Shown here: positions 4,955-53,286 of the stretch, piece after piece | Layout: the number at the start of each line of letters is the position of its first letter | How positions within the stretch are numbered: position 1 is the stretch's first letter | Assembly: GCF_000620865.1 (NCBI RefSeq) | Contig: NZ_KK211190.1 | Coordinates: 1,501,971 to 1,565,970, forward strand | Reading direction: 5' to 3' | DNA length: 64,000 nucleotides | Source: Exiguobacterium sibiricum 7-3 | Lineage (GTDB): Bacteria > Bacillota > Bacilli > Exiguobacteriales > Exiguobacteriaceae | Notes under the pieces: model-generated | Told to the model about the DNA's origin: nothing | The model's database searches: none | What the model saw: the letters and a program-made list of their open reading frames with translations, nothing else | Translations under genes and position numbers: made by a program

Positions 4955-5478
4955 CCGGACTCTCTTCCTTTCGCTTGATGGCGTTGTAGTTTTTGAATCG
5001 CCCAGTATAACGTACTTTTCACCGTACTGATCGGAATGTCGAGTAAATCAGCAATTTCCTGAAAGGAATAATCGGCTTGATACCGTAACGTGACTAACGA
5101 CCGTTCCTTGACATCGAGTCGTTCAAGTAAATCAGTCAGGTACAGTTGATCAATGACCACATGTTCAAACGACGGGATTTGCGGCTCACCCCTATCCTGT
5201 GCCGTATCGTTTGTCCAGACCAGCACTTGGTATTTCTTAAGATGATCGAGTGCTGCATTGATCGTGATCCGGGTCAGCCAAGTCTTAAAATAGGTGACAT
5301 CCTGCAGTGACTTTCGGTACTTCCAGGCGCGAAAAGCGACTTCCTGCACGTTTTCGAGCGCTTCCTGCTCGTGTTTTAAATACAGATACGACATCCGGTA
5401 AATATAGCGTTCTTCGGCATATAACGCTGCGAGAAACACATCATCCGTCCAACTCCCGGCGATTTTTTTACGAAACAC
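4951..5478 (-). CDS. ECF-type RNA polymerase sigma factor
   Basis: A 175-residue sigma-70-family protein with region 2 (YIYRMSYLYLKHEQEALENVQEVAFRAW read in two parts) and region 4 (RSLVTLRYQADYSFQEIA then DIPISTVKSTLYWAI). It resembles SigV/SigM-type sigma factors of Bacillus. The start is GTG at 5478 behind GGGGGGAG. It is followed by its membrane partner with an ATGA overlap. A TGAAAC box upstream (see separate entry) suggests autoregulation. Confidence 0.92.
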   Translation of the reverse strand: MFRKKIAGSWTDDVFLAALYAEERYIYRMSYLYLKHEQEALENVQEVAFRAWKYRKSLQDVTYFKTWLTRITINAALDHLKKYQVLVWTNDTAQDRGEPQIPSFEHVVIDQLYLTDLLERLDVKERSLVTLRYQADYSFQEIADLLDIPISTVKSTLYWAIQKLQRHQAKGRESG

Positions 5479-6051: not shown

Positions 6052-6177
6052 ATTCTCATTCGACCGGAAACTTCTGTTTCAATTTTCTATTCTCTATGTA
6101 ATCATCTTTTATAAATAGACAAAATTTTCAAATAATATTACACTTATTTTACCTTAATTTGTAAAAGGAGTGGTTTG

Positions 6178-6873
6178 ATGGATATCTTAGTCAAAGACGT
6201 CTCGCACACATTCAACCAGGTGGGACTACAGAGTGAAGTCTTAAAAGCGTTGACCTGTCAGTTTTCCGCGAGTGACATCACCGCCCTTGTCGGTCCGTCC
6301 GGATCAGGGAAATCGACGTTTTTAAGTCTGATCGGCTCGCTCGACCGGCCGACATCGGGGCAAATCGACTATGACGGACAAGACATCACGAAGTGGAAGA
6401 ACCGGCAATTGTCAAAGTTCCGGGCGCAGGAAATCGGTTTTGTCTTCCAACAGTTTCACCTGTTGCCCGCGTTGACGGTCAAAGAAAATCTGCTCGTTCC
6501 CTTACTGAAACAAAAAACCGACTTCAACAAAGAAGACCGGATTGCGGAAATCTTGGAAAAAGTCGGACTGACAGCGAAACAGGATGCCTTGCCGGCGCAA
6601 TTGTCCGGCGGGCAACAGCAACGGGTCGCGATTGCCCGAGCCCTGATCAATCGGCCGCGCTGGATTCTCGCCGACGAACCAACCGGTAATCTCGACTCGG
6701 TCAACGGGGAGATGATCTTTCAACTGTTGCTCGATCTCCATCAAGAAGAACAATGCGGCATCTTGTTCGTCACGCACGATTTGGCCCTGGCCGAACGGGC
6801 GGACCGGATTCTATTCATGCAGGATGGACAGATTGTTGAAGACCGGCGGAAACAGACCGTTCGGAGTGTGTAA
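6178..6873 (+). CDS. ABC transporter ATP-binding protein (MacB/LolD type)
   Basis: A 231-residue ATPase with Walker [10 protein letters not shown], signature LSGGQQQR, Walker [10 protein letters not shown] with catalytic glutamate, and H-loop FVTHD. This type drives type VII (MacB-like) ABC machines with FtsX-fold permeases. AAAAGGAG at 6163-6170 supports ATG 6178 rather than the TTG three bases earlier. It is the first gene of a three-gene operon with an unknown membrane protein and a large FtsX-type permease. Confidence 0.95.
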
Positions 6874-6893
6874 AAACGATTCATGGAGGCGAG

Positions 6894-7670
6894 GTGGGAT
6901 TCATCAAAACGTTCCGGTCCAAACTCATTGTATGCATGATTGGTTCATCCGCCGTCTTTTTTCTGCTGTTGTTTACGACACAATCGGTCTATCAATCCTT
7001 TCGGCAAGCAGACTTTTCTGAACAGGAAACGACGGTAAAACGGGGATGTGGAAAGGATTCGTTGTCAAATCGGATTTTTTCAAAATATAACTGTTCCGAA
7101 GGGATCATCCGAGAAGATTCCGAGGGTGAAATTCTTGGGGGTGCGACTGGGAAAACGGAAAAGATCGAAGGTGCTTCACGCGGAAAAGTAAAAACGGCTG
7201 AATCGGCCTCTTTCTTCGAAACAACCAAGGAAGCCGCCCGTTCCAAGTCGTCCTATTGGTTATGGGCAGGTCTGTTGCTTGCCGGGTTCTTCATGTTCTT
7301 CATCTCTCATCATTTCAATCAGCGACGGCTCCGGAATCGCCCAATCAGCGAAACTTCCGTAATCCATAACCGGACCGCCTTACCACGACCATTCTCGATT
7401 CATCCGACGAGCACACCCAAGATGCCCGTTCCACCGCAGGAATCTGTCCGGCTGCTCTTATTCGACTTCAATCAGCAATTATCAAAACCATTGCAACGCC
7501 GACGGCACGAGTCGCTGACAGAGTGGACGCAGCGAATTGAGTTGTCGACGTCACTTGCGCCCTACCTGATTACCCGCTATGCAACAGAGACAGATGTTGA
7601 TCCAAACGAACTCCGTCACTTCAAACAGGATTTAACAACGTATTTACGCCATCAGTCTTCCCATCACTGA
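6894..7670 (+). CDS. Unknown two-segment membrane protein of the ABC operon
   Basis: A 258-residue protein not recognised with confidence. One membrane segment lies near the N-terminus (about residues 10-28), then a polar loop of about 90 residues rich in G, K, E and S, a second segment (about 123-139) and a cytoplasmic C-terminal helix-rich domain. That domain (LLLFDFNQQLSKPLQRRRHESLTEWTQRIE in parts) loosely recalls the C-terminus of DUF4129 proteins. Start is GTG 6894 behind GGAGG with a short 4-nt spacing. It sits 20 bp after the ATPase and 16 bp before the permease, so it is probably an accessory subunit. Confidence 0.6.
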   Translation: MGFIKTFRSKLIVCMIGSSAVFFLLLFTTQSVYQSFRQADFSEQETTVKRGCGKDSLSNRIFSKYNCSEGIIREDSEGEILGGATGKTEKIEGASRGKVKTAESASFFETTKEAARSKSSYWLWAGLLLAGFFMFFISHHFNQRRLRNRPISETSVIHNRTALPRPFSIHPTSTPKMPVPPQESVRLLLFDFNQQLSKPLQRRRHESLTEWTQRIELSTSLAPYLITRYATETDVDPNELRHFKQDLTTYLRHQSSHH

Positions 7671-7686
7671 ATAAAGGAGAATCCCT

Positions 7687-10323
7687 ATGCTACGTTTCGT
7701 TTTGAATCACTGGCGCCGGCAACGGTTTAAATTCATCCTGACGCTTGTCGGCGCGCTCATCATCAGTGCCGGTCTCAGTCTGATGTTCAACCTGACCGAC
7801 TCCAGCCAAGGCACGGTCGAACAGACGTTACAGAAAAAATGGTCGTCCGCCTACGATATCGTCGTTCGGCCAAAAGGTAGTCAAATGTCTACTGAATCAA
7901 GTGACCTGCTCGAACCCAACTATTTAAACGGTATCAACGGCGGGATTTCTTTTAAACAATATGAAACAATCAAACAGATGAAAGCGATTGATATTGCGGC
8001 ACCGGTAGCCGTGATGGGCTACGTCAATACGACGGTCAATTTCAAAAAGAAATTGAAGTTCCCAAGAACACCAGGTTTGTACCGCATCACGACAACCAAC
8101 TATATCCAAAACGGTTTTAATAAAGAACGTCAATCGCAAGTCATTCTACATGTGGCACAAGGCAGTAAAATCTCCATTCCAAGCAATGTTTCGTTTTTGA
8201 CGGAACCGATTGATGTCTTTGAAGATGCAGTCGCAAGTAATTCAGTTCTTGTCGTTGCGATTGATCCGAAGGAAGAAGCACGACTTGTCGGTTTAGATAA
8301 AAGTGTCAATTCAAAAAATAAATCGCGTTATTTTTCGTCCCTTGACCGGTACGAGTACGATAAAAGTACGAGTAAACATACGATTCCTGTTTTAGTAAAT
8401 CCCAACTCTTACAATCAGGGAAACTATACCTATAAAACCGAAAAACTAAATGCGCCCTTCAAAACAGAACAAGATCAACAAAAACTGGTCGATGAATTGA
8501 TTAAAAAACAACCAAAACGATCGCTTGACCAATCGGTTTTAAATACATACCCTGCTAAGATCATCGAACGAGTCAATATTCCGACGTCTAAAGTGGAAGA
8601 AACGTATTTACAAACGTTGATTAATAATACAAACGTGACGTATTCCGACCCGGCAGAAGAAGACGGCGGAATGCTCCTTTACAACACGGGTCCTCTTCAA
8701 TTCAAGTCGGAATCCAGTCCTTATCCGAGTCGTTGGAATACGGCTTACGAAGTCTCGTCTTCACCGCTTGAAATCAAAGATTGGCAATACGGCAAAAGTA
8801 TCTTCCCTGCTAAAGGATACCGCGCCATAAAATCTGTCGGTAAAAAAGTAAAGAAACCAAAGCCGGACGAAGTGGACGTCCTCTTTCCTTATCTCGCTTT
8901 TAAGGTCGTTGGTCTGTATGATCCGAACAAAATCAAAGTTTCCAAAGATCCGCTTAATGAACTGCCGATGGAAACGTATCGTCCGTCCTCTGCCGATCTC
9001 GTCCTCGATGCGAAAGGTGAGCCGGTTAATCCGGCGAAATCAATCGATACGTCCGGCAATCCCGTTGGTTTGCTGACGAGTTCACCAAACATCCTGACGA
9101 CACTCGAAAGTGCACGAGGTGTCAGCGGTGAACAAGCAATTTCCTCGATTCGCCTCAAAGTCAAAGGCGCAACAACCGTCAGTGAAGAGTCGGAACAATT
9201 GCTGCAAGACGTCAAGACACAAATCGAACAGGAAACCGGTCTGCTGGCAACGATCACCAAAGGCTCATCGCCGCAACCAGTCGTGACAAAAGTCGTCGAT
9301 AACGGCAAAACACTCGGTTGGATTGAACAGCCGTGGATTCATATCGGCGCCGCGATGACAATCTTCCGCGAGACGAGTGTCGGCTTCTCCGGCGTCATCT
9401 TCGCCATGCTTGCTGTTGCCATCGTCTACGTCCTTGTGACAAGTTATGTCTCGATGCTCGCCCGGCGGAAAGAATTTGCCGTCTTGCTGGCGCTCGGCTG
9501 GCGGACAAAAGACTTGTACCGGATTGTCTTGATTGAAGCCGCGATTCTCGCCGGTTTTGTCTCTATCGTCGCGTTGATTGTCGAAAGCATTTTCTCGTAT
9601 GTCCGAAGTGAGACGATGAACGGTTGGAGTTTGCTCTGGATCACACTGTTCAGTTTGGTGATTTACTTTGCCGGTGCGGCCTGGTCGTCGTTTACGATCC
9701 GGAAGATTTCACCGTACGAAGCGATCAAGACGGGTGAATATGCGTCCTCGTCGCACGTCAAACTCGGTCTCCGGTCGACCTGGACACTGGCACTTAAAGA
9801 AATCTTCGGCAAATGGAAACGTAATGCGCTGTCGATTCTCTCGATTGCTTTACCAACAGCCTTGCTGACATTCTTCTTGTTCGTCACATTCCACCTGCAA
9901 GGTGTCCTGTATACATCATGGCTCGGCCAGTTCGTTGCCTTGCAGGTCGGTCCGATGCATTACGTGACGATGGGGGTTGCGATTACGATTGCGATCTTAA
10001 CAACTGGAGAAATCATGTGGCAGAACGTCACCGATCGGCGGGCGTCGCTCGCAATCCTCAAAGCCGTCGGTTGGACGAACGGTTCTGTCCGTCAGTTGAT
10101 TGTCTTGGAAGGGATGCTAATCGGATTTGTCGCCGGAATCGTCGGCCTGAGCATCTCCTATCTCACGATTTATGTCTTGTATGATCTCGTCCCGTGGGAT
10201 GAGCCGCTCTTGATTGCTGTCTCCCTGTTTCTGCCGGTGTTGTTCGGAACGATCGCTTCCCTGTTGCCGGCGCAAATTGCGGCACGCGTCAATCCGTACC
10301 AGGAGCTGAAGGACGCCGGGTGA
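7687..10323 (+). CDS. Large FtsX-type ABC permease
   Basis: An 878-residue permease. One N-terminal membrane segment precedes a long extracytoplasmic domain (about residues 40-545), then membrane segments carrying two FtsX domains. The motif YVSMLARRKEFAVLLALGWR and its later counterpart NVTDRRASLAILKAVGWT are the paired coupling regions that contact the ATPase. Family members move lipids or peptides, or transmit mechanical force, rather than transporting through a channel. It is in an operon with its ATPase and is paralogous to the 1236-residue permease at 49576-53286, sharing NPLYxGI-like, KDPLxELPMETY and TMHYV/PMHYV regions. Cargo is unknown. Confidence 0.92.
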   Translation: MLRFVLNHWRRQRFKFILTLVGALIISAGLSLMFNLTDSSQGTVEQTLQKKWSSAYDIVVRPKGSQMSTESSDLLEPNYLNGINGGISFKQYETIKQMKAIDIAAPVAVMGYVNTTVNFKKKLKFPRTPGLYRITTTNYIQNGFNKERQSQVILHVAQGSKISIPSNVSFLTEPIDVFEDAVASNSVLVVAIDPKEEARLVGLDKSVNSKNKSRYFSSLDRYEYDKSTSKHTIPVLVNPNSYNQGNYTYKTEKLNAPFKTEQDQQKLVDELIKKQPKRSLDQSVLNTYPAKIIERVNIPTSKVEETYLQTLINNTNVTYSDPAEEDGGMLLYNTGPLQFKSESSPYPSRWNTAYEVSSSPLEIKDWQYGKSIFPAKGYRAIKSVGKKVKKPKPDEVDVLFPYLAFKVVGLYDPNKIKVSKDPLNELPMETYRPSSADLVLDAKGEPVNPAKSIDTSGNPVGLLTSSPNILTTLESARGVSGEQAISSIRLKVKGATTVSEESEQLLQDVKTQIEQETGLLATITKGSSPQPVVTKVVDNGKTLGWIEQPWIHIGAAMTIFRETSVGFSGVIFAMLAVAIVYVLVTSYVSMLARRKEFAVLLALGWRTKDLYRIVLIEAAILAGFVSIVALIVESIFSYVRSETMNGWSLLWITLFSLVIYFAGAAWSSFTIRKISPYEAIKTGEYASSSHVKLGLRSTWTLALKEIFGKWKRNALSILSIALPTALLTFFLFVTFHLQGVLYTSWLGQFVALQVGPMHYVTMGVAITIAILTTGEIMWQNVTDRRASLAILKAVGWTNGSVRQLIVLEGMLIGFVAGIVGLSISYLTIYVLYDLVPWDEPLLIAVSLFLPVLFGTIASLLPAQIAARVNPYQELKDAG

Positions 10324-49466: not shown

Positions 49467-49583
49467 ATGAGCGATGTACGTAAAAATCCAATCGTCATCC
49501 GAATGAATGAACCATCATTTATTGAACCTGTTGTTTCGTTTTTTTCTAGTCAAAGGATGATTGGAGGAACGGCTGATGCTTAA
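49467..49583 (+). CDS. 38-codon ORF overlapping the start of the giant permease
   Basis: ATG 49467 follows AAGGGAGGAACTGTG, a good ribosome site, and encodes 38 residues beginning MSDVRKNPIVIRMNEPSF and ending MIGGTADA. Its stop (49581-49583) overlaps the permease start (49576) by 8 bp. It may be a leader peptide that couples translation, or the remnant of a deleted ATPase gene; no ATPase motif is visible. Confidence 0.45.
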   Translation: MSDVRKNPIVIRMNEPSFIEPVVSFFSSQRMIGGTADA

Positions 49584-52500
49584 ATTCATCTGGAATTCCT
49601 GGTGGCGTAACAAGGAGCGGTTCATCCTGCTCCTCGTCGGTGTCCTGATTGTCAGCACCGGACTCAGTTATCTGATTGGGACGACGCAGGCGAACAACGG
49701 TACCGTCGTTGATGAACTGCAAAAGCGCTGGGGCTCGTCTTACGACATCGTCGTCCGGCCGCCGGACAGCCGCAGTGTAACGGAAGACTTGAAGCTGCTT
49801 GAGCCAAACTATATGAGCGGTCTCGACGGCGGCATCACAATGAAACAGTACAAGACGATTGAACAGATAAACGATATTGAAGTCGCGGCTCCGATCGCGA
49901 TGATCGGGAATTATTATGCGGATGCCCAGATTGGGACATACGATTTTAAAGAGCAAGGCATCTATAAAGTCACGATTCAAGATGTTCAGGATACCGGTTT
50001 ACAGCAAGAACAACAGACGAACTCTTACTTTTTAGGTGCCGGATGGTCTCCTTCCGAAAGCGATGGCCTGAATCGTGATCTTTCGCCGCAAGAGTTGGGA
50101 AAACAACCACTCATGGAGTTCGGTAGCGCAACGATGCTCGCCGGAATCGATCCAGAAGCAGAAGCCCGGCTCGTCGGTCTCGATCAAGCGACGAAAAAAG
50201 CGACACACAGCCGCTATTTCACAAAAGACGATATCGCGACAGACAACGGAGATGATGTATGGAACATCCCGTTGATTTTAAACAGTCATGAATACGTCGA
50301 TGCCTACCGGAAGTATCGCTACGAAAAAGTCGATGTTCCCTTAGTTAATGATTCGATGACCGAGACCGTCCAAGACATTATGAAAAAAGGCGGGAAATCG
50401 TATCTGAAGACGCTTCCGGTCCAACCTGCGAAAGTCTATAAGATTACGACAAATGAAACCTCTAAAAAACTGGTCAACGACATCTTAAAAGGCACGGTTC
50501 CGTCTAAACCAGCTGGAAGCTTCGACTGGATGTACTTGAAGCCCTCCTCCGTCGAATACCAGGCGCTCGCGAGTCCGTTCGCTACACGATGGCCGTTTGC
50601 CTATCAGGTCACACCACAGGAAGTGCCGGAAGATGTTCAATTGGCCAAACGAACGATGTACCGAAAAGTCCGGTCGTTTGGAGATACGTCTATCAATTTA
50701 AATTCCGTACCGAAGATGAATTTAAAGTTCATCGGTGTGTTCGATCCACAAAAACTGAACATTTCGAAGGATCCATTGACTGAGCTTCCGATGGAGACGT
50801 ACTTCCCGGCGAAGGCCCAATGGGTCATGGACAAAAACGAACGACCCGTTAATCCCATCCGTGACGTCAAGCCGACAAATGATCCGTATGACTTCCTGAC
50901 GAAACCGCCGTCGATGTTGACGACACTGGATGCGGCGTTCAAGCTCCGCGGCGACAAAGCCATCTCGGCCATCCGGATCAACGTCAAAGGGGTCGAAACG
51001 ATGAATGCGACGAGCGAAAAAAAATTGCAGGCTGTCGCTCAAGAGATTGAAGACAAGACGGGACTGATTACCGATGTGACACTCGGGTCCTCGCCGCAAC
51101 TCGCCCTGACCTATCTGCCCGGCTTAAAAAATGAATCGGCTTTAGGTTGGGTTCAGCAACCATGGATCAAACTCGGTTCCTCGATGGCGATTTTTCAAGA
51201 GGCGAAAGTCGGCATGAGCGGTGTCATCGCGAGTGTGATTGCGGTCGCGCTCGTTTATGTCTTCAGCTCGAACATCATCTTGCTCTATGCCCGCAAAAAA
51301 GAGTTTGCGATTTTACTGTCGCTCGGTTGGCGTCCGCGTCAGTTGTCGAAGCTGCTGTTTTTAGAGGCAACATTGCTCGGAACGTTTGTCGCCCTGATTT
51401 CCTGGACGATCCTCGGTTCGTTCTGGCTGACGACGGATCATCCGATCGCTCTCGTGCGGATTCTGTCGATCGGACTCGCCGGTCTGTTGATTTACTGGGG
51501 CGGCACGCTCGTCCCGATGGCTCTGATCCGCCGCATCCAGGCGTTTGAAAGCATGCGCTCCGGTGAAGTCTCAAAAGGTCGCCGTTTCGTCCGCTCCCAG
51601 TCCGTTTTCGGGATGAGTCTTAATCAGCTGTTCACGTACTGGCAACGGACGTTGCTGTCAATCGTCGCGATTGCCCTGCCGACCAGTCTGTTCATCTTCT
51701 TCCTGTTCGTGACGTTCCGACTGAAAGGTGTCTTGTATGCGACCTGGCTCGGCGAGTACGTCGCGCTTGAAGTCGGGACGATGCATTACGTCGCGATGGC
51801 GGTCGCCCTCTTGATCGCAATCCTGACGACAACGGAAATCATGTGGCAAAACGTCAATGAGCGGAAACCGCAACTCGCCGTCTTAAAAGCAACCGGTTGG
51901 CGCGACGGCTGGATCCGGCTGCTTGTCCTGACGGAAGGCATGTTGACCGGGTTATTCGCCGGTGTCATCGGTCTCTTACTTGCGCTCGCCATGATTGGAT
52001 ACGTCTATAACCAGTTCCCGGTCAATGAGCTGTTGTTCCTCAGTGTGATGCTGTTCATCCCGGTCGTGACCGGAGTGCTCGGTGCGCTGTTGCCGGCACA
52101 ACGGGCCGTCCGGATTACGCCGAATGCAGCGATCGGCAGTGTCTCCGTCAATACCCAGGCGACGGAACGCCGTTTTAAACTGGCCCTTGGCACGATCGGC
52201 GTCGTCTTAGCCGCTGGCGTCTCCAGCCTGTTCCTGTTTGCTGCAAACGAAGACATCACGCAAGCACCAAAACAGACGCAGGATAAATCGTTTGCCGTTC
52301 AAACGACCGGTACGAAAATCGCTGATTTAAAACAGACCGAGTCGAAGAAAACAGCGGCCGTTTCTCAGTCGGAAACCGACAAAAAAATCAAGAAGCTGAT
52401 GAAAAAAGGTATGGTGCAGACGACTCCAGGCGGCGAACGGATCAATAATCAGTTCTTTTATGTCGATCCGCTGATCGAGACACCAAAAGAGCTCGATTTA

Positions 52501-53286
52501 AAAGAAAAACCCGGTTACCGTTTTGTAACGGTTCCGGCGATTATGCAGGATAATCAGGATTCCTCAATAAAAGGTGCCAAGTCCATCTATCGGCCAAGCA
52601 CCTATGCGATGACCGCTCCTGATGGAAAGGAATATTTGTCGGTTGATTATGTCAATCATAATGAAAAAGCCTGGAAATTCAGTTATCAGTATTTTCCGCC
52701 TGAAAAATCACGCGTCGATCTCGTCTATCAAGTACCGGAAGACGAAAAAGTATTGGTTCTGTATGCATCAGATAGTGCGTTCCCGAGAACGGTCACCGTC
52801 AAAATCGAATTGCCTCCGGTAGCAAAGGCTTTGACGGATCAAGAAGAACAAGCCGTCAAACAGATGATGAATAAAGGTGTCGTCAAGACCTATCCCGGTG
52901 ATCCGCTTCAGAAAAAAGCAGTGTTTCATGTCGATAGCCTGTTGCCGAATCCACCGAAAGAGTTGAAATTAAAACCGCGGAGCGGTTACCAATTGGTCAC
53001 GTTGCCGTTGATTTTTCAGGATACGTATTACGATTATGACGGAAGTTCCGTGAATTACCGTCCGAATACGTTCACGCTGCAAGCACCGGACGGAACCGAG
53101 TATGAACAAATCGATTACGTCAACCGAAATGAAAAAGCGTGGAAAAGTGGATTCCAGTATTATCCTCCGTTTCGTTCGCGAGTCGATTTTGTTTATGAAG
53201 TACCGGATGATCAGTCTGTTTTCGTCATGTATGCGTCAAGTGAAGCGTTCCCGAAACCAACAACCGTCAAAGTCGAACTGGACTAA
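49576..53286 (+). CDS. Giant FtsX-type ABC permease with C-terminal extracytoplasmic repeats
   Basis: A 1236-residue permease. It matches the 878-residue paralogue: N-terminal membrane segment, large extracytoplasmic domain (about 40-545), and the coupling motifs IILLYARKKEFAILLSLGW and NVNERKPQLAVLKATGW. After about residue 860 it continues with an extra membrane segment (KLALGTIGVVLAAGVSSLFLF) and two extracytoplasmic repeats of about 145 residues. No ATPase gene is nearby. GGAGGA before ATG 49576 defines the start, not the TTG at 49561. Cargo unknown. Confidence 0.92.
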   Translation: MLKFIWNSWWRNKERFILLLVGVLIVSTGLSYLIGTTQANNGTVVDELQKRWGSSYDIVVRPPDSRSVTEDLKLLEPNYMSGLDGGITMKQYKTIEQINDIEVAAPIAMIGNYYADAQIGTYDFKEQGIYKVTIQDVQDTGLQQEQQTNSYFLGAGWSPSESDGLNRDLSPQELGKQPLMEFGSATMLAGIDPEAEARLVGLDQATKKATHSRYFTKDDIATDNGDDVWNIPLILNSHEYVDAYRKYRYEKVDVPLVNDSMTETVQDIMKKGGKSYLKTLPVQPAKVYKITTNETSKKLVNDILKGTVPSKPAGSFDWMYLKPSSVEYQALASPFATRWPFAYQVTPQEVPEDVQLAKRTMYRKVRSFGDTSINLNSVPKMNLKFIGVFDPQKLNISKDPLTELPMETYFPAKAQWVMDKNERPVNPIRDVKPTNDPYDFLTKPPSMLTTLDAAFKLRGDKAISAIRINVKGVETMNATSEKKLQAVAQEIEDKTGLITDVTLGSSPQLALTYLPGLKNESALGWVQQPWIKLGSSMAIFQEAKVGMSGVIASVIAVALVYVFSSNIILLYARKKEFAILLSLGWRPRQLSKLLFLEATLLGTFVALISWTILGSFWLTTDHPIALVRILSIGLAGLLIYWGGTLVPMALIRRIQAFESMRSGEVSKGRRFVRSQSVFGMSLNQLFTYWQRTLLSIVAIALPTSLFIFFLFVTFRLKGVLYATWLGEYVALEVGTMHYVAMAVALLIAILTTTEIMWQNVNERKPQLAVLKATGWRDGWIRLLVLTEGMLTGLFAGVIGLLLALAMIGYVYNQFPVNELLFLSVMLFIPVVTGVLGALLPAQRAVRITPNAAIGSVSVNTQATERRFKLALGTIGVVLAAGVSSLFLFAANEDITQAPKQTQDKSFAVQTTGTKIADLKQTESKKTAAVSQSETDKKIKKLMKKGMVQTTPGGERINNQFFYVDPLIETPKELDLKEKPGYRFVTVPAIMQDNQDSSIKGAKSIYRPSTYAMTAPDGKEYLSVDYVNHNEKAWKFSYQYFPPEKSRVDLVYQVPEDEKVLVLYASDSAFPRTVTVKIELPPVAKALTDQEEQAVKQMMNKGVVKTYPGDPLQKKAVFHVDSLLPNPPKELKLKPRSGYQLVTLPLIFQDTYYDYDGSSVNYRPNTFTLQAPDGTEYEQIDYVNRNEKAWKSGFQYYPPFRSRVDFVYEVPDDQSVFVMYASSEAFPKPTTVKVELD
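52381..53283 (+). repeat. Two tandem protein-domain repeats in the giant permease
   Basis: Repeat 1 (about residues 936-1080) and repeat 2 (about 1087-1236) share a scaffold: K(K/G)M-or-GVV start, Y(R/Q)(F/L)VT(V/L)P, YRP(S/N)T, APDG, DYVN(H/R)NEKAWK, QY(F/Y)PP, SRVD(L/F)VY(Q/E)VP and YAS(D/S)(S/E)AFP. This is direct evidence of an internal duplication of one extracytoplasmic domain. Confidence 0.9.

What the first reader, a model, noticed from the sequence alone, without database searches (positions are those of the whole stretch)
49576..53286. Orphan giant FtsX permease with two tandem extracytoplasmic domains
The paralogue at 7687 ends after the membrane domain. This one carries an additional membrane segment and two homologous domains of about 145 residues each. 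No ATPase gene is adjacent. Duplicated extracytoplasmic domains on a type VII ABC permease suggest a ligand-binding or peptidoglycan/peptide-contacting module. It could act as a sensor whose ATPase comes from the operon at 6.2 kb.
Basis: partly seen in the sequence, partly recalled or inferred. Interest (0 to 1): 0.62.

Follow-up and report, generated by a model that had tools for sequence, protein, structure and literature searches.

The report
Transporter separated from its motor gene
A large bacterial membrane transporter has lost its neighbouring energy-supplying gene, probably shares one kept elsewhere on the chromosome, and carries swappable outer domains; some relatives sit beside small cysteine-rich peptides that look like antibacterial toxins.

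Summary
In detail: window 49576-53286 encodes a 1236-aa FtsX-type permease with one membrane segment more than its paralogue at 7687, two C-terminal domains 50% identical to each other, and no neighbouring ATPase.

The interpretation changes. In relatives the permease is paired with a LolD-like ATPase gene that overlaps its start by 8 nt (23 of 23 loci L075-L097). In the window's genus the pair came apart: 31 of 38 intact permeases lack a neighbouring ATPase, while 18 of 19 genomes keep one solitary ATPase that groups with the permease-paired ATPases. Here it lies 3.5 kb left of the window. It is a better partner than the 6.2-kb ATPase, which E. sibiricum lacks although it keeps this permease.

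The repeats are Ig-like (MPT63-like fold, DUF4352 affinity), shuffled by recombination; the window gene is a chimera of two tandem genes still seen in E. undae. In Planococcaceae and an unnamed Bacilli family, the permease's outer end carries an M1 zinc-peptidase motif.

Some relatives sit in clusters with Cys-rich bacteriocin-like peptides, an exporter and MauD/MauE proteins. Best reading: an ATP-driven envelope machine handling antimicrobial peptides, with exchangeable outer heads. Function is inferred, not shown; this genome has no such peptide.

The parts
49467..49583 (+). 38-codon leader ORF whose TAA stop lies inside the permease's ATGCTTAA start, the same 8-nt overlap that the ATPase gene has in paired relatives; likely a relic of the lost ATPase gene and possibly used for translational coupling
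   Evidence: Found (SD-like match of 5). Same overlap in 7 of 7 paired g1 permeases and in 14 of 31 orphans including this one. Only one orphan leader (L060) still shows ATPase ends: 18 of 24 N-terminal residues by eye. The window leader has no recognisable ATPase residues, and CTT-AAA codons supply the stop by themselves, so the relic reading is inference.
49576..53286 (+). FtsX-type (type VII ABC) permease, 1236 aa, without a neighbouring ATPase gene
   Evidence: purifying selection dN/dS 0.06-0.09 against three orthologues
49687..51195 (+). large extracytoplasmic domain between TM1 and TM2, residues about 38-540
   Evidence: hydropathy; model; matches to MacB periplasmic region 3ftj Z 11.0 and YknZ extracellular domain 5f9q Z 10.6
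51196..52140 (+). two FtsX modules, residues about 541-855: TM2-4 and then TM5-8 with no second extracytoplasmic domain
   Evidence: Pfam FtsX, two stretches
52180..52236 (+). additional membrane segment, residues 869-887, which places the C-terminal domains outside
   Evidence: topology is inference
52378..52815 (+). Ig-like domain R1 (residues 935-1080)
   Evidence: closest rows are first domains of the orthologues and of E. undae gene 1
52846..53283 (+). Ig-like domain R2 (residues 1091-1236), derived from a second tandem permease gene
   Evidence: model pLDDT 95.7; fold matches; chimera junction near residue 1080; tree

Best explanation
The gene is the permease half of a two-gene type VII ABC system (ATPase plus permease) whose ATPase gene was lost at this site. 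It most likely works with a solitary, genus-wide LolD-like ATPase (G000:C7:1497804-1498511, 3.5 kb left of the window) that can serve several such permeases in trans. One polypeptide holds both FtsX modules, so two ATPase copies would drive one permease, as in YbbA2P. ATP binding and hydrolysis would move the outer domain between TM1 and TM2 (mechanotransmission, from known type VII systems), while the C-terminal module, anchored by its own membrane helix, would meet the substrate or partner outside. That module is exchangeable: one or two Ig-like domains here, an M1 zinc-peptidase domain with or without Ig-like domains in other Bacilli, nothing in some. Because relatives are part of clusters that encode Cys-rich bacteriocin-like peptides, the most likely task is handling such peptides at the outer membrane face: self-protection or resistance first, export or maturation second. 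Shown: orphan state, paired relatives, solitary ATPase and its grouping, chimera, domain shuffling, selection, cluster membership of relatives. Inferred: the trans partnership, the mechanics, the substrate. I put the trans-ATPase part at about 0.7 and the antimicrobial-peptide part at about 0.45.
For: Adjacent overlapping ATPase in 23 of 23 loci L075-L097 and 7 of 38 permeases of the window's genus. In the sister genus 14 of 19 genomes have permease and ATPase side by side and 5 have neither. Solitary ATPase in 18 of 19 genomes of the own genus, with no FtsX permease in the fetched flanks, one group (95/78) with the P-paired ATPases on the near side and the Q-operon ATPases apart, dN/dS 0.02-0.06. 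N-terminus and first coupling segment of the window permease match P-paired permeases (87-100% and 63-100%) better than Q (40% and 43%). Core resembles YbbP, Z 22.6 over 518 residues. Chimera 760:122 against 27:181 informative sites. Peptide clusters. M1 motif in 10 of 10 permeases over 1300 aa looked at.
Against: Three genomes (G004, G014, G016) keep the solitary ATPase but have no P-type permease, so it may have another task. The branch uniting all P-paired and solitary ATPases has modest support (89/57). The second coupling segment separates P from Q less well (paired rows 52-87%, Q 52%). No Cys-rich peptide of this family is found in the window's genome (0 matches), nor in 35 of 38 family genomes at E <= 0.01 (the third of the 3 hits, G028, is a stop-ridden weak match); most chromosomal pairs have none nearby. 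Activity of the peptides is unknown. Two of six M1-type loci (L196, L197) show no peptide.
Confidence: 0.55

Rival explanations
1. One reading: a ligand-sensing permease that borrows the ATPase of the Q operon at 6178-6870.
For: That ATPase is in the same genome, LolD-like, about 54% identical to P-paired ATPases, and its own permease is a 39% identical relative of P. Q clusters already let one ATPase sit beside up to three Q permeases (L131).
Against: It belongs to a separate branch. G005 has this permease at 93% identity but neither Q nor its ATPase at the thresholds used. The solitary ATPase is 69-74% identical to P-paired ATPases.
Confidence: 0.15
2. A decaying leftover: the ATPase is gone and the permease is non-functional.
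For: Orphan state; neighbours in the genus include broken or fragmentary copies (L044, L046 5536-6972); empty sites in G004 and G014.
Against: Intact frame in four orthologues and dN/dS 0.06-0.09 with dS 0.16-0.37 (window pairs).
Confidence: 0.08
3. A cell-envelope regulator like FtsEX or a lipid or lipoprotein extractor like LolCDE or YbbAP, unrelated to antimicrobial peptides.
For: Fold matches to YbbP, LolE, MacB, FtsX; most chromosomal copies have no peptide nearby.
Against: Patchy presence, copy numbers from 0 to 8 intact genes per genome, plasmid copies, recombining outer domains and peptide clusters are unusual for housekeeping.
Confidence: 0.25
4. The ATPase-permease pair exports or matures the Cys-rich peptides rather than protecting against them; M1-bearing versions trim an N-terminal extension.
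For: Peptides beside M1-type permeases carry an 11-13-residue N-terminal extension behind a strong SD (4 peptides), while Exiguobacterium peptides beside permeases without M1 start directly at the core.
Against: A separate ABC exporter is in the same clusters; the contrast is between only two lineages; orphan permeases in genomes without peptides would have nothing to export.
Confidence: 0.2

Closest known systems
E. coli YbbAP-TesA (type VII ABC permease with an outer hydrolase; PMC12646458, abstract and passages seen)
   Same: Both FtsX modules in one polypeptide; best structural match of the core (Z 22.6, rmsd 7.1, 518 residues); an outer effector, a hydrolase in YbbAP-TesA and an M1 peptidase domain in relatives of this permease.
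   Different: YbbP has 10 TM helices and two outer domains; this one is predicted with 8 plus 1 and one outer domain. ATPase not adjacent. The window protein has Ig-like domains, no hydrolase.
BceAB-type permeases of Bacillota
   Same: Single-polypeptide type VII permease; structural match 8s5g Z 19.3 over 340 residues.
   Different: Bce-type has ten TM helices and a single outer domain (passage of PMC11466899), between TM7 and TM8 (recalled); here it lies between TM1 and TM2.
Mr10EFGH / As-48EFGH bacteriocin immunity ABC transporters (PMC10598978, abstract and passages seen)
   Same: Bacteriocin-associated ABC transporter with a conserved motor part and a variable bacteriocin-specific part; copies without bacteriocin also exist.
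   Different: Four separate proteins there; the variable part is Mr10E, a four-TM protein, not Ig-like domains. No sequence relation was tested.
Shared-ATPase ABC systems: MceG for Mce1 and Mce4 (PMC9947336, abstract and start of introduction seen), MsmK (PMC4519317, search listing only)
   Same: One ATPase gene serves several permeases.
   Different: Those are import systems with other permease folds; sharing here is inferred from genomes only.
DUF4352 / MPT63-like Ig-fold secreted domains
   Same: 20 of 55 members of the repeat family match DUF4352 at a relaxed cut-off, best E 3.8e-5; model matches 5bxg Z 7.9 and MPT63 1lmi Z 7.3.
   Different: The window's R2 matches no Pfam family at E <= 10; the domain is fused to an ABC permease.

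Membership tests
Type VII (MacB/FtsX) ABC permease | FtsX-like permease domain | tested here: met
   Pfam FtsX 70.2 bits, cut-off 25.5
Type VII (MacB/FtsX) ABC permease | four-helix modules with a large outer domain between TM1 and TM2 and MacB-like fold | tested here: met
   core model of moderate confidence (mean pLDDT 74, pTM 0.55)
Type VII (MacB/FtsX) ABC permease | works with a LolD/MacB-type ATPase | tested here: inconclusive
   No adjacent gene here; paired in relatives; solitary candidate in the genome. Physical pairing not testable here.
YbbAP-TesA | two FtsX modules in one polypeptide | tested here: met
   two Pfam stretches, structural match over residues 1-857
YbbAP-TesA | 10 TM helices and two outer domains | tested here: not met
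   8 core TM segments plus one, one outer domain predicted; YbbP description
BceAB | ten TM helices, outer domain between TM7 and TM8 (position recalled) | tested here: not met
DUF4352 | sequence match over the Pfam threshold | tested here: inconclusive
   R2: no match at E <= 10; 20 of 55 relatives match at relaxed cut-off, best 3.8e-5
DUF4352 | Ig-like beta-sandwich fold | tested here: met
   model pLDDT 95.7; 5bxg and MPT63 stand above an Ig background of Z 5.3 or less, though Z under 8 can be a common arrangement
Bacteriocin immunity/export ABC transporter | encoded with a bacteriocin-type peptide | tested here: not met
   None in the window's genome; met in relatives
Bacteriocin immunity/export ABC transporter | protects against or exports the peptide | not testable with these tools
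   -
Shared-ATPase ABC systems | one ATPase gene, several ATPase-less permease genes in the genome | tested here: met
   e.g. G001: 6 of 8 intact P permeases without an adjacent ATPase plus a solitary ATPase; for the window's genome it is one permease and one solitary ATPase
Shared-ATPase ABC systems | the ATPase energises these permeases | not testable with these tools
   -

The most novel reading that the evidence does not exclude
A previously undescribed kind of antimicrobial-peptide machine in Bacilli: a type VII ABC permease whose outer end is an exchangeable head (Ig-like domains or an M1 zinc peptidase), born in gene clusters for Cys-rich disulphide-bonded bacteriocins, and turned in one Exiguobacterium lineage into an array of recombining, motorless resistance permeases all driven in trans by one solitary ATPase, with the remnant of the lost ATPase gene kept as a coupling leader.
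Probability: 0.35. Interest if true: 0.82.

Novelty: new variant of a known kind. Interest (0 to 1): 0.66.

Why it matters
If right, it shows how a paired ABC system falls apart into one shared motor and a set of motorless permeases, with several intermediate steps still visible in living genomes, and gives a direct test of whether type VII motors can be shared. It also links an uncharacterised permease family to unannotated Cys-rich peptides and offers a second case, beside YbbAP-TesA, of a type VII permease joined to an outer hydrolase, here an M1 peptidase. The genes can be tested at once in E. sibiricum or Bacillus subtilis.

Tried and rejected
Rejected: the 6.2-kb ATPase as the main partner; a recent tandem duplication as the origin of R1 and R2, because in the R-domain tree they sit in different groups and the E. 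undae pair explains R2; pure decay.

Led nowhere: PDB sequence search with the repeat profile (0 hits at E <= 10) and with the core (weak MacB, LolE, LolF, PsdB, FtsX, YtrF hits only); plain Foldseek ranking of the R2 model, filled by antibody domains with none at E <= 0.001; PADLOC, only FtsX-level or ATPase-level hits; viral contigs for the peptides (39 pattern matches, none confirmed); Pfam and NCBIfam for the peptides (no families); the peptide of L191 in plasmids (no match). G016's empty site could not be read clearly. The promoter/terminator scan found fewer promoter-like sites than shuffles gave, 3 against a mean of 4.8.

Not done: whole-genome search for a stand-alone M1 peptidase in the window's genome (cap reached); no model of permease with ATPase; no structure of the M1-bearing versions or of R1 with R2 together. 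Five further rows of >1300 aa are not claimed: only the ten permeases listed were looked at.

Literature: 10 searches of the held library. Among the papers listed I saw none that describes this permease family, the solitary ATPase or these peptides; the listings were capped at 10-20 rows, and most subscription papers are not held. PMC6016940 lists FtsX-like permease genes of E. antarcticum without further function (passages).

Rows left out of the count of 38: L044 3798-7325 (lacks the N-terminus), L046 5536-6972 (fragment), L047 1-2975 (cut at the locus edge, beside an ATPase gene with an internal deletion). Loci L064-L074 were not printed, as they lie in genomes already examined.
Full report
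WHAT IS THERE. The window lies in an Exiguobacterium-type genome (G000:C7:1501971-1565970, 3.08 Mb); its closest named relatives by this gene are Exiguobacterium sp. RIT594 (98%), sp. KRL4 (94%), E. sibiricum (93%) and E. undae (86%). Window 49576-53286 encodes P, 1236 aa, with two Pfam FtsX stretches. Hydropathy gives TM1 at 16-34, a gap to 545, seven more core segments to about 837, and one at 869-887; the model agrees. With the positively charged N-terminus inside, the C-terminal domains lie outside; this is inference. The paralogue Q at 7687-10320 ends after the eight core segments. R1 and R2 are 50% identical.

THE DOMAINS. A profile of 55 repeat copies (A1) gave a model of R2 with mean pLDDT 95.7. 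VIA-align ranks a C. difficile beta-sandwich protein (5bxg, Z 7.9, rmsd 3.5, 121 aligned) and MPT63 (1lmi, Z 7.3, rmsd 4.2, 115 aligned) above an immunoglobulin background at Z 5.3 or less; these values are below 8 and so not strong alone. In Pfam, 20 of 55 members match DUF4352 at a relaxed cut-off, best E 3.8e-5; the window's R2 itself matches nothing at E <= 10. One passage of PMC4520260 says DUF4352 has an immunoglobulin fold. I call R an Ig-like, DUF4352-like domain, without claiming Pfam membership.

THE CORE. The model of residues 1-905 is of moderate quality (pLDDT 74, pTM 0.55). The best structural match is E. coli YbbP (9ge7, Z 22.6, rmsd 7.1, 518 aligned over 1-857), then BceB (8s5g, Z 19.3), YtrF, FtsX, MacB and LolE. 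YbbAP-TesA is proposed to extract hydrophobic compounds from the membrane and present them to an outer hydrolase (abstract and passages of PMC12646458).

THE MISSING ATPASE. In one search, 34 loci with relatives were found; 23 of them (L075-L097, Exiguobacterium of other lineages, Planococcus, Planomicrobium, Paenisporosarcina, Sediminibacillus, Fictibacillus, Virgibacillus, Metabacillus) were examined, and 23 of 23 have a LolD-like ATPase gene that overlaps the permease start by 8 nt. In the sister genus, 14 of 19 genomes have permease and ATPase side by side and 5 have neither (thresholds 1e-100 and 1e-70). In the window's genus, 16 of 19 genomes have P-type permeases. Of 38 intact ones, 7 have an adjacent ATPase and 31, this one included, do not; three incomplete copies were left out.

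THE SOLITARY ATPASE. A search with a P-paired ATPase found, besides the Q-operon ATPases at 53-57% identity, an ATPase of 69-74% identity in 18 of 19 genomes. Its fetched surroundings (18 loci) are syntenic, with an oxidoreductase gene and a small membrane protein, and hold no FtsX permease. In the tree of 61 ATPases the 18 solitary ones form one group (95/78) on the side of the P-paired ones, and the 9 Q-operon ones form another (92/99); the branch joining all P-paired with the solitary ones is only 89/57. Walker A, signature and Walker B sequences are intact (motifs recalled; sequence). dN/dS is 0.02-0.06. E. sibiricum (G005) has this permease and the solitary ATPase but no Q-type ATPase or permease at the thresholds used. 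Against exclusivity: G004, G014 and G016 have the solitary ATPase without a P permease; in G004 and G014 the flanking genes meet with 128 and 116 nt between them where the window has about 4.3 kb.

TRACES OF THE LOSS. In 7 of 7 paired permeases of the genus the ATPase stop lies at +5 of the permease start. In 14 of 31 orphans a short ORF of at least 10 codons still ends there, the window's 38-codon ORF among them. In L060 this ORF is an ATPase with its middle deleted: 18 of its first 24 residues match and the end is kept (by eye). In L047 an ATPase of 176 residues lacks an internal part. For the other leaders the shared overlap is the only trace.

SHUFFLING. Against the two tandem permeases of G018 (E. 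undae), the window gene is 83-100% identical (aa, windows) to gene 1 up to residue about 1080, but 45% to its second domain and 86-90% to the second domain of gene 2; informative sites are 760:122 left of the break and 27:181 right of it. Among 38 permeases (703 pairs) median identities are 97% for TM1, 69% for the outer domain, 90% and 85% for the FtsX modules, 45% for the linker and 42% for the first R domain. Part of that low R value arises because single-domain genes can carry what is the second domain elsewhere. In a tree of 61 R domains, first, second and single domains are mixed (at least 5 to 8 label changes forced by starred branches), and window R1 and R2 are not sisters. Six permeases (L041, L045, L048, L051, L055, L056) are preceded on the same strand by a separate membrane-anchored protein with one R domain, so R proteins are likely subunits of the complex.

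SELECTION. Against three orthologues, P has dN/dS 0.06-0.09 overall; R1 0.07-0.27 and R2 0.14-0.21 (window pairs). It is functional and the outer domains change faster.

COMPATIBILITY. The first 15 residues are identical or nearly so in P-paired permeases (87-100%; Q 40%). The segment after TM2 is 63-100% against 43% for Q; the segment after TM6 is 52-87% against 52%, which does not separate them cleanly. These segments were taken as coupling regions by position.

CLUES TO FUNCTION. Plasmid copies of the pair lie in a conserved cluster. On pE73 (E. alkaliphilum) and pEYLC1.1 (E. acetylicum), next to each other, are a MauD/TraF-like thiol-disulphide protein, a MauE protein (Pfam E 1.2e-19), an ABC exporter, a second small protein and, unannotated, one or two 55-residue peptides with six cysteines directly upstream of ATPase and permease. 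Contig C25 of G015 has peptide copies beside ATPase and permease at one end and further copies plus exporter, MauE and MauD at the other; that the ends join is inferred. The peptides share M1, P5, C6, C18, Y20, C24, D39, R41, D42, G43, C46, C53 and C55 and match no family. In 38 family genomes they were found in G001 and G015, plus one stop-ridden weak match.

INDEPENDENT CO-LOCALISATION. Among 398 genomes of the class, 43 have the permease core and 7 a peptide match. Three of the 7 belong to an unnamed genus (g23, family f22): G160 and G329 have the peptide 4.6 and 3.7 kb upstream of a permease of about 1400 aa, and in G392 the pieces lie at contig ends. Reading six g23 loci (five genomes), L191 (G160) and L195 (G077) have the order peptide, thioredoxin-like, exporter, MauE, MauD, ATPase, permease; L192 (G329) has the same order without a Trx-like match and without the ATPase; L193 and L194 (G392) hold it in two contigs; L196 (G305) has only MauD, ATPase and permease; L197 (second locus of G329) has permease and ATPase without a peptide. 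Two other peptide matches (G090, G220) are weak, E 5e-4 and 7e-4.

A PEPTIDASE HEAD. All ten permeases longer than 1300 aa that I looked at, six from g23 and four from Planococcus or Planomicrobium, carry HExxH-x18-E near the C-terminus; Pfam M1 was confirmed in the three scanned. The Planococcaceae ones also have one or two R domains. In Paenisporosarcina (L084) the M1 part is a separate ORF after the permease. Permeases in L198 and L199 end at about 900 aa with no such module; L200 is split into two ORFs. g23 peptides have an 11-13-residue N-terminal extension behind a clear SD, absent from the Exiguobacterium peptides; this fits leader trimming by the M1 head but rests on two lineages.

MODEL. 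The likeliest picture is an ATP-driven outer-face machine that meets amphipathic or disulphide-rich peptides in or at the membrane and either removes or processes them, with the exchangeable head deciding what is bound or what happens next. In bacteriocin systems such as Mr10EFGH, a conserved motor and permease combine with a part that follows the bacteriocin, and copies without bacteriocin exist (abstract and passages of PMC10598978). The window gene would then be a resistance-type permease in a genome without the peptide. This is inference.

NOVELTY. [quoted passage not shown] The combination of split motor, recombining outer domains, M1-headed relatives and peptide clusters was not seen in the papers listed by my ten searches (capped listings, limited library).

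Noticed in passing
L098:4831-4998 and 5104-5271; L099:6986-7153 and 1188-1361; L054:8379-8546; L154:47-608: Unannotated Cys-rich peptides (six cysteines, about 55 residues) with exporter, MauD, MauE and Trx-like genes on Exiguobacterium plasmids or plasmid-like contigs; no Pfam or NCBIfam match.
   Followed up: partly
L191, L192, L193/L194, L195: A distant version of the same peptide cluster in an unnamed Bacilli genus (g23), with an N-terminal extension on the peptide and an M1 zinc-peptidase head on the permease.
   Followed up: partly
L192:11428-11460 and L197:9633-14553: In G329 one cluster lacks the ATPase between MauD and permease while another permease of the same genome has one: possibly a second case of a shared motor.
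   Followed up: no
window 6175-10323; L131:4910-15333: The Q operon (ATPase, small membrane protein, permease) has up to three Q permeases beside one ATPase in G001.
   Followed up: no
L084:4001-8514: In Paenisporosarcina the M1 peptidase part follows the permease as a separate ORF.
   Followed up: no
L080:4001-7225; L093:4001-7247; G022:C19:356952-360141: Permease genes interrupted into two ORFs in several sister-genus genomes.
   Followed up: no
L154:4273-4440: A more divergent peptide-like ORF (E 0.0018) beside the MauD gene of G015 contig C25.
   Followed up: no
NZ_CP022984.1:60159-63411 (L100): A Cytobacillus kochii plasmid carries an ATPase-permease pair of this family without the C-terminal module.
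   Followed up: no
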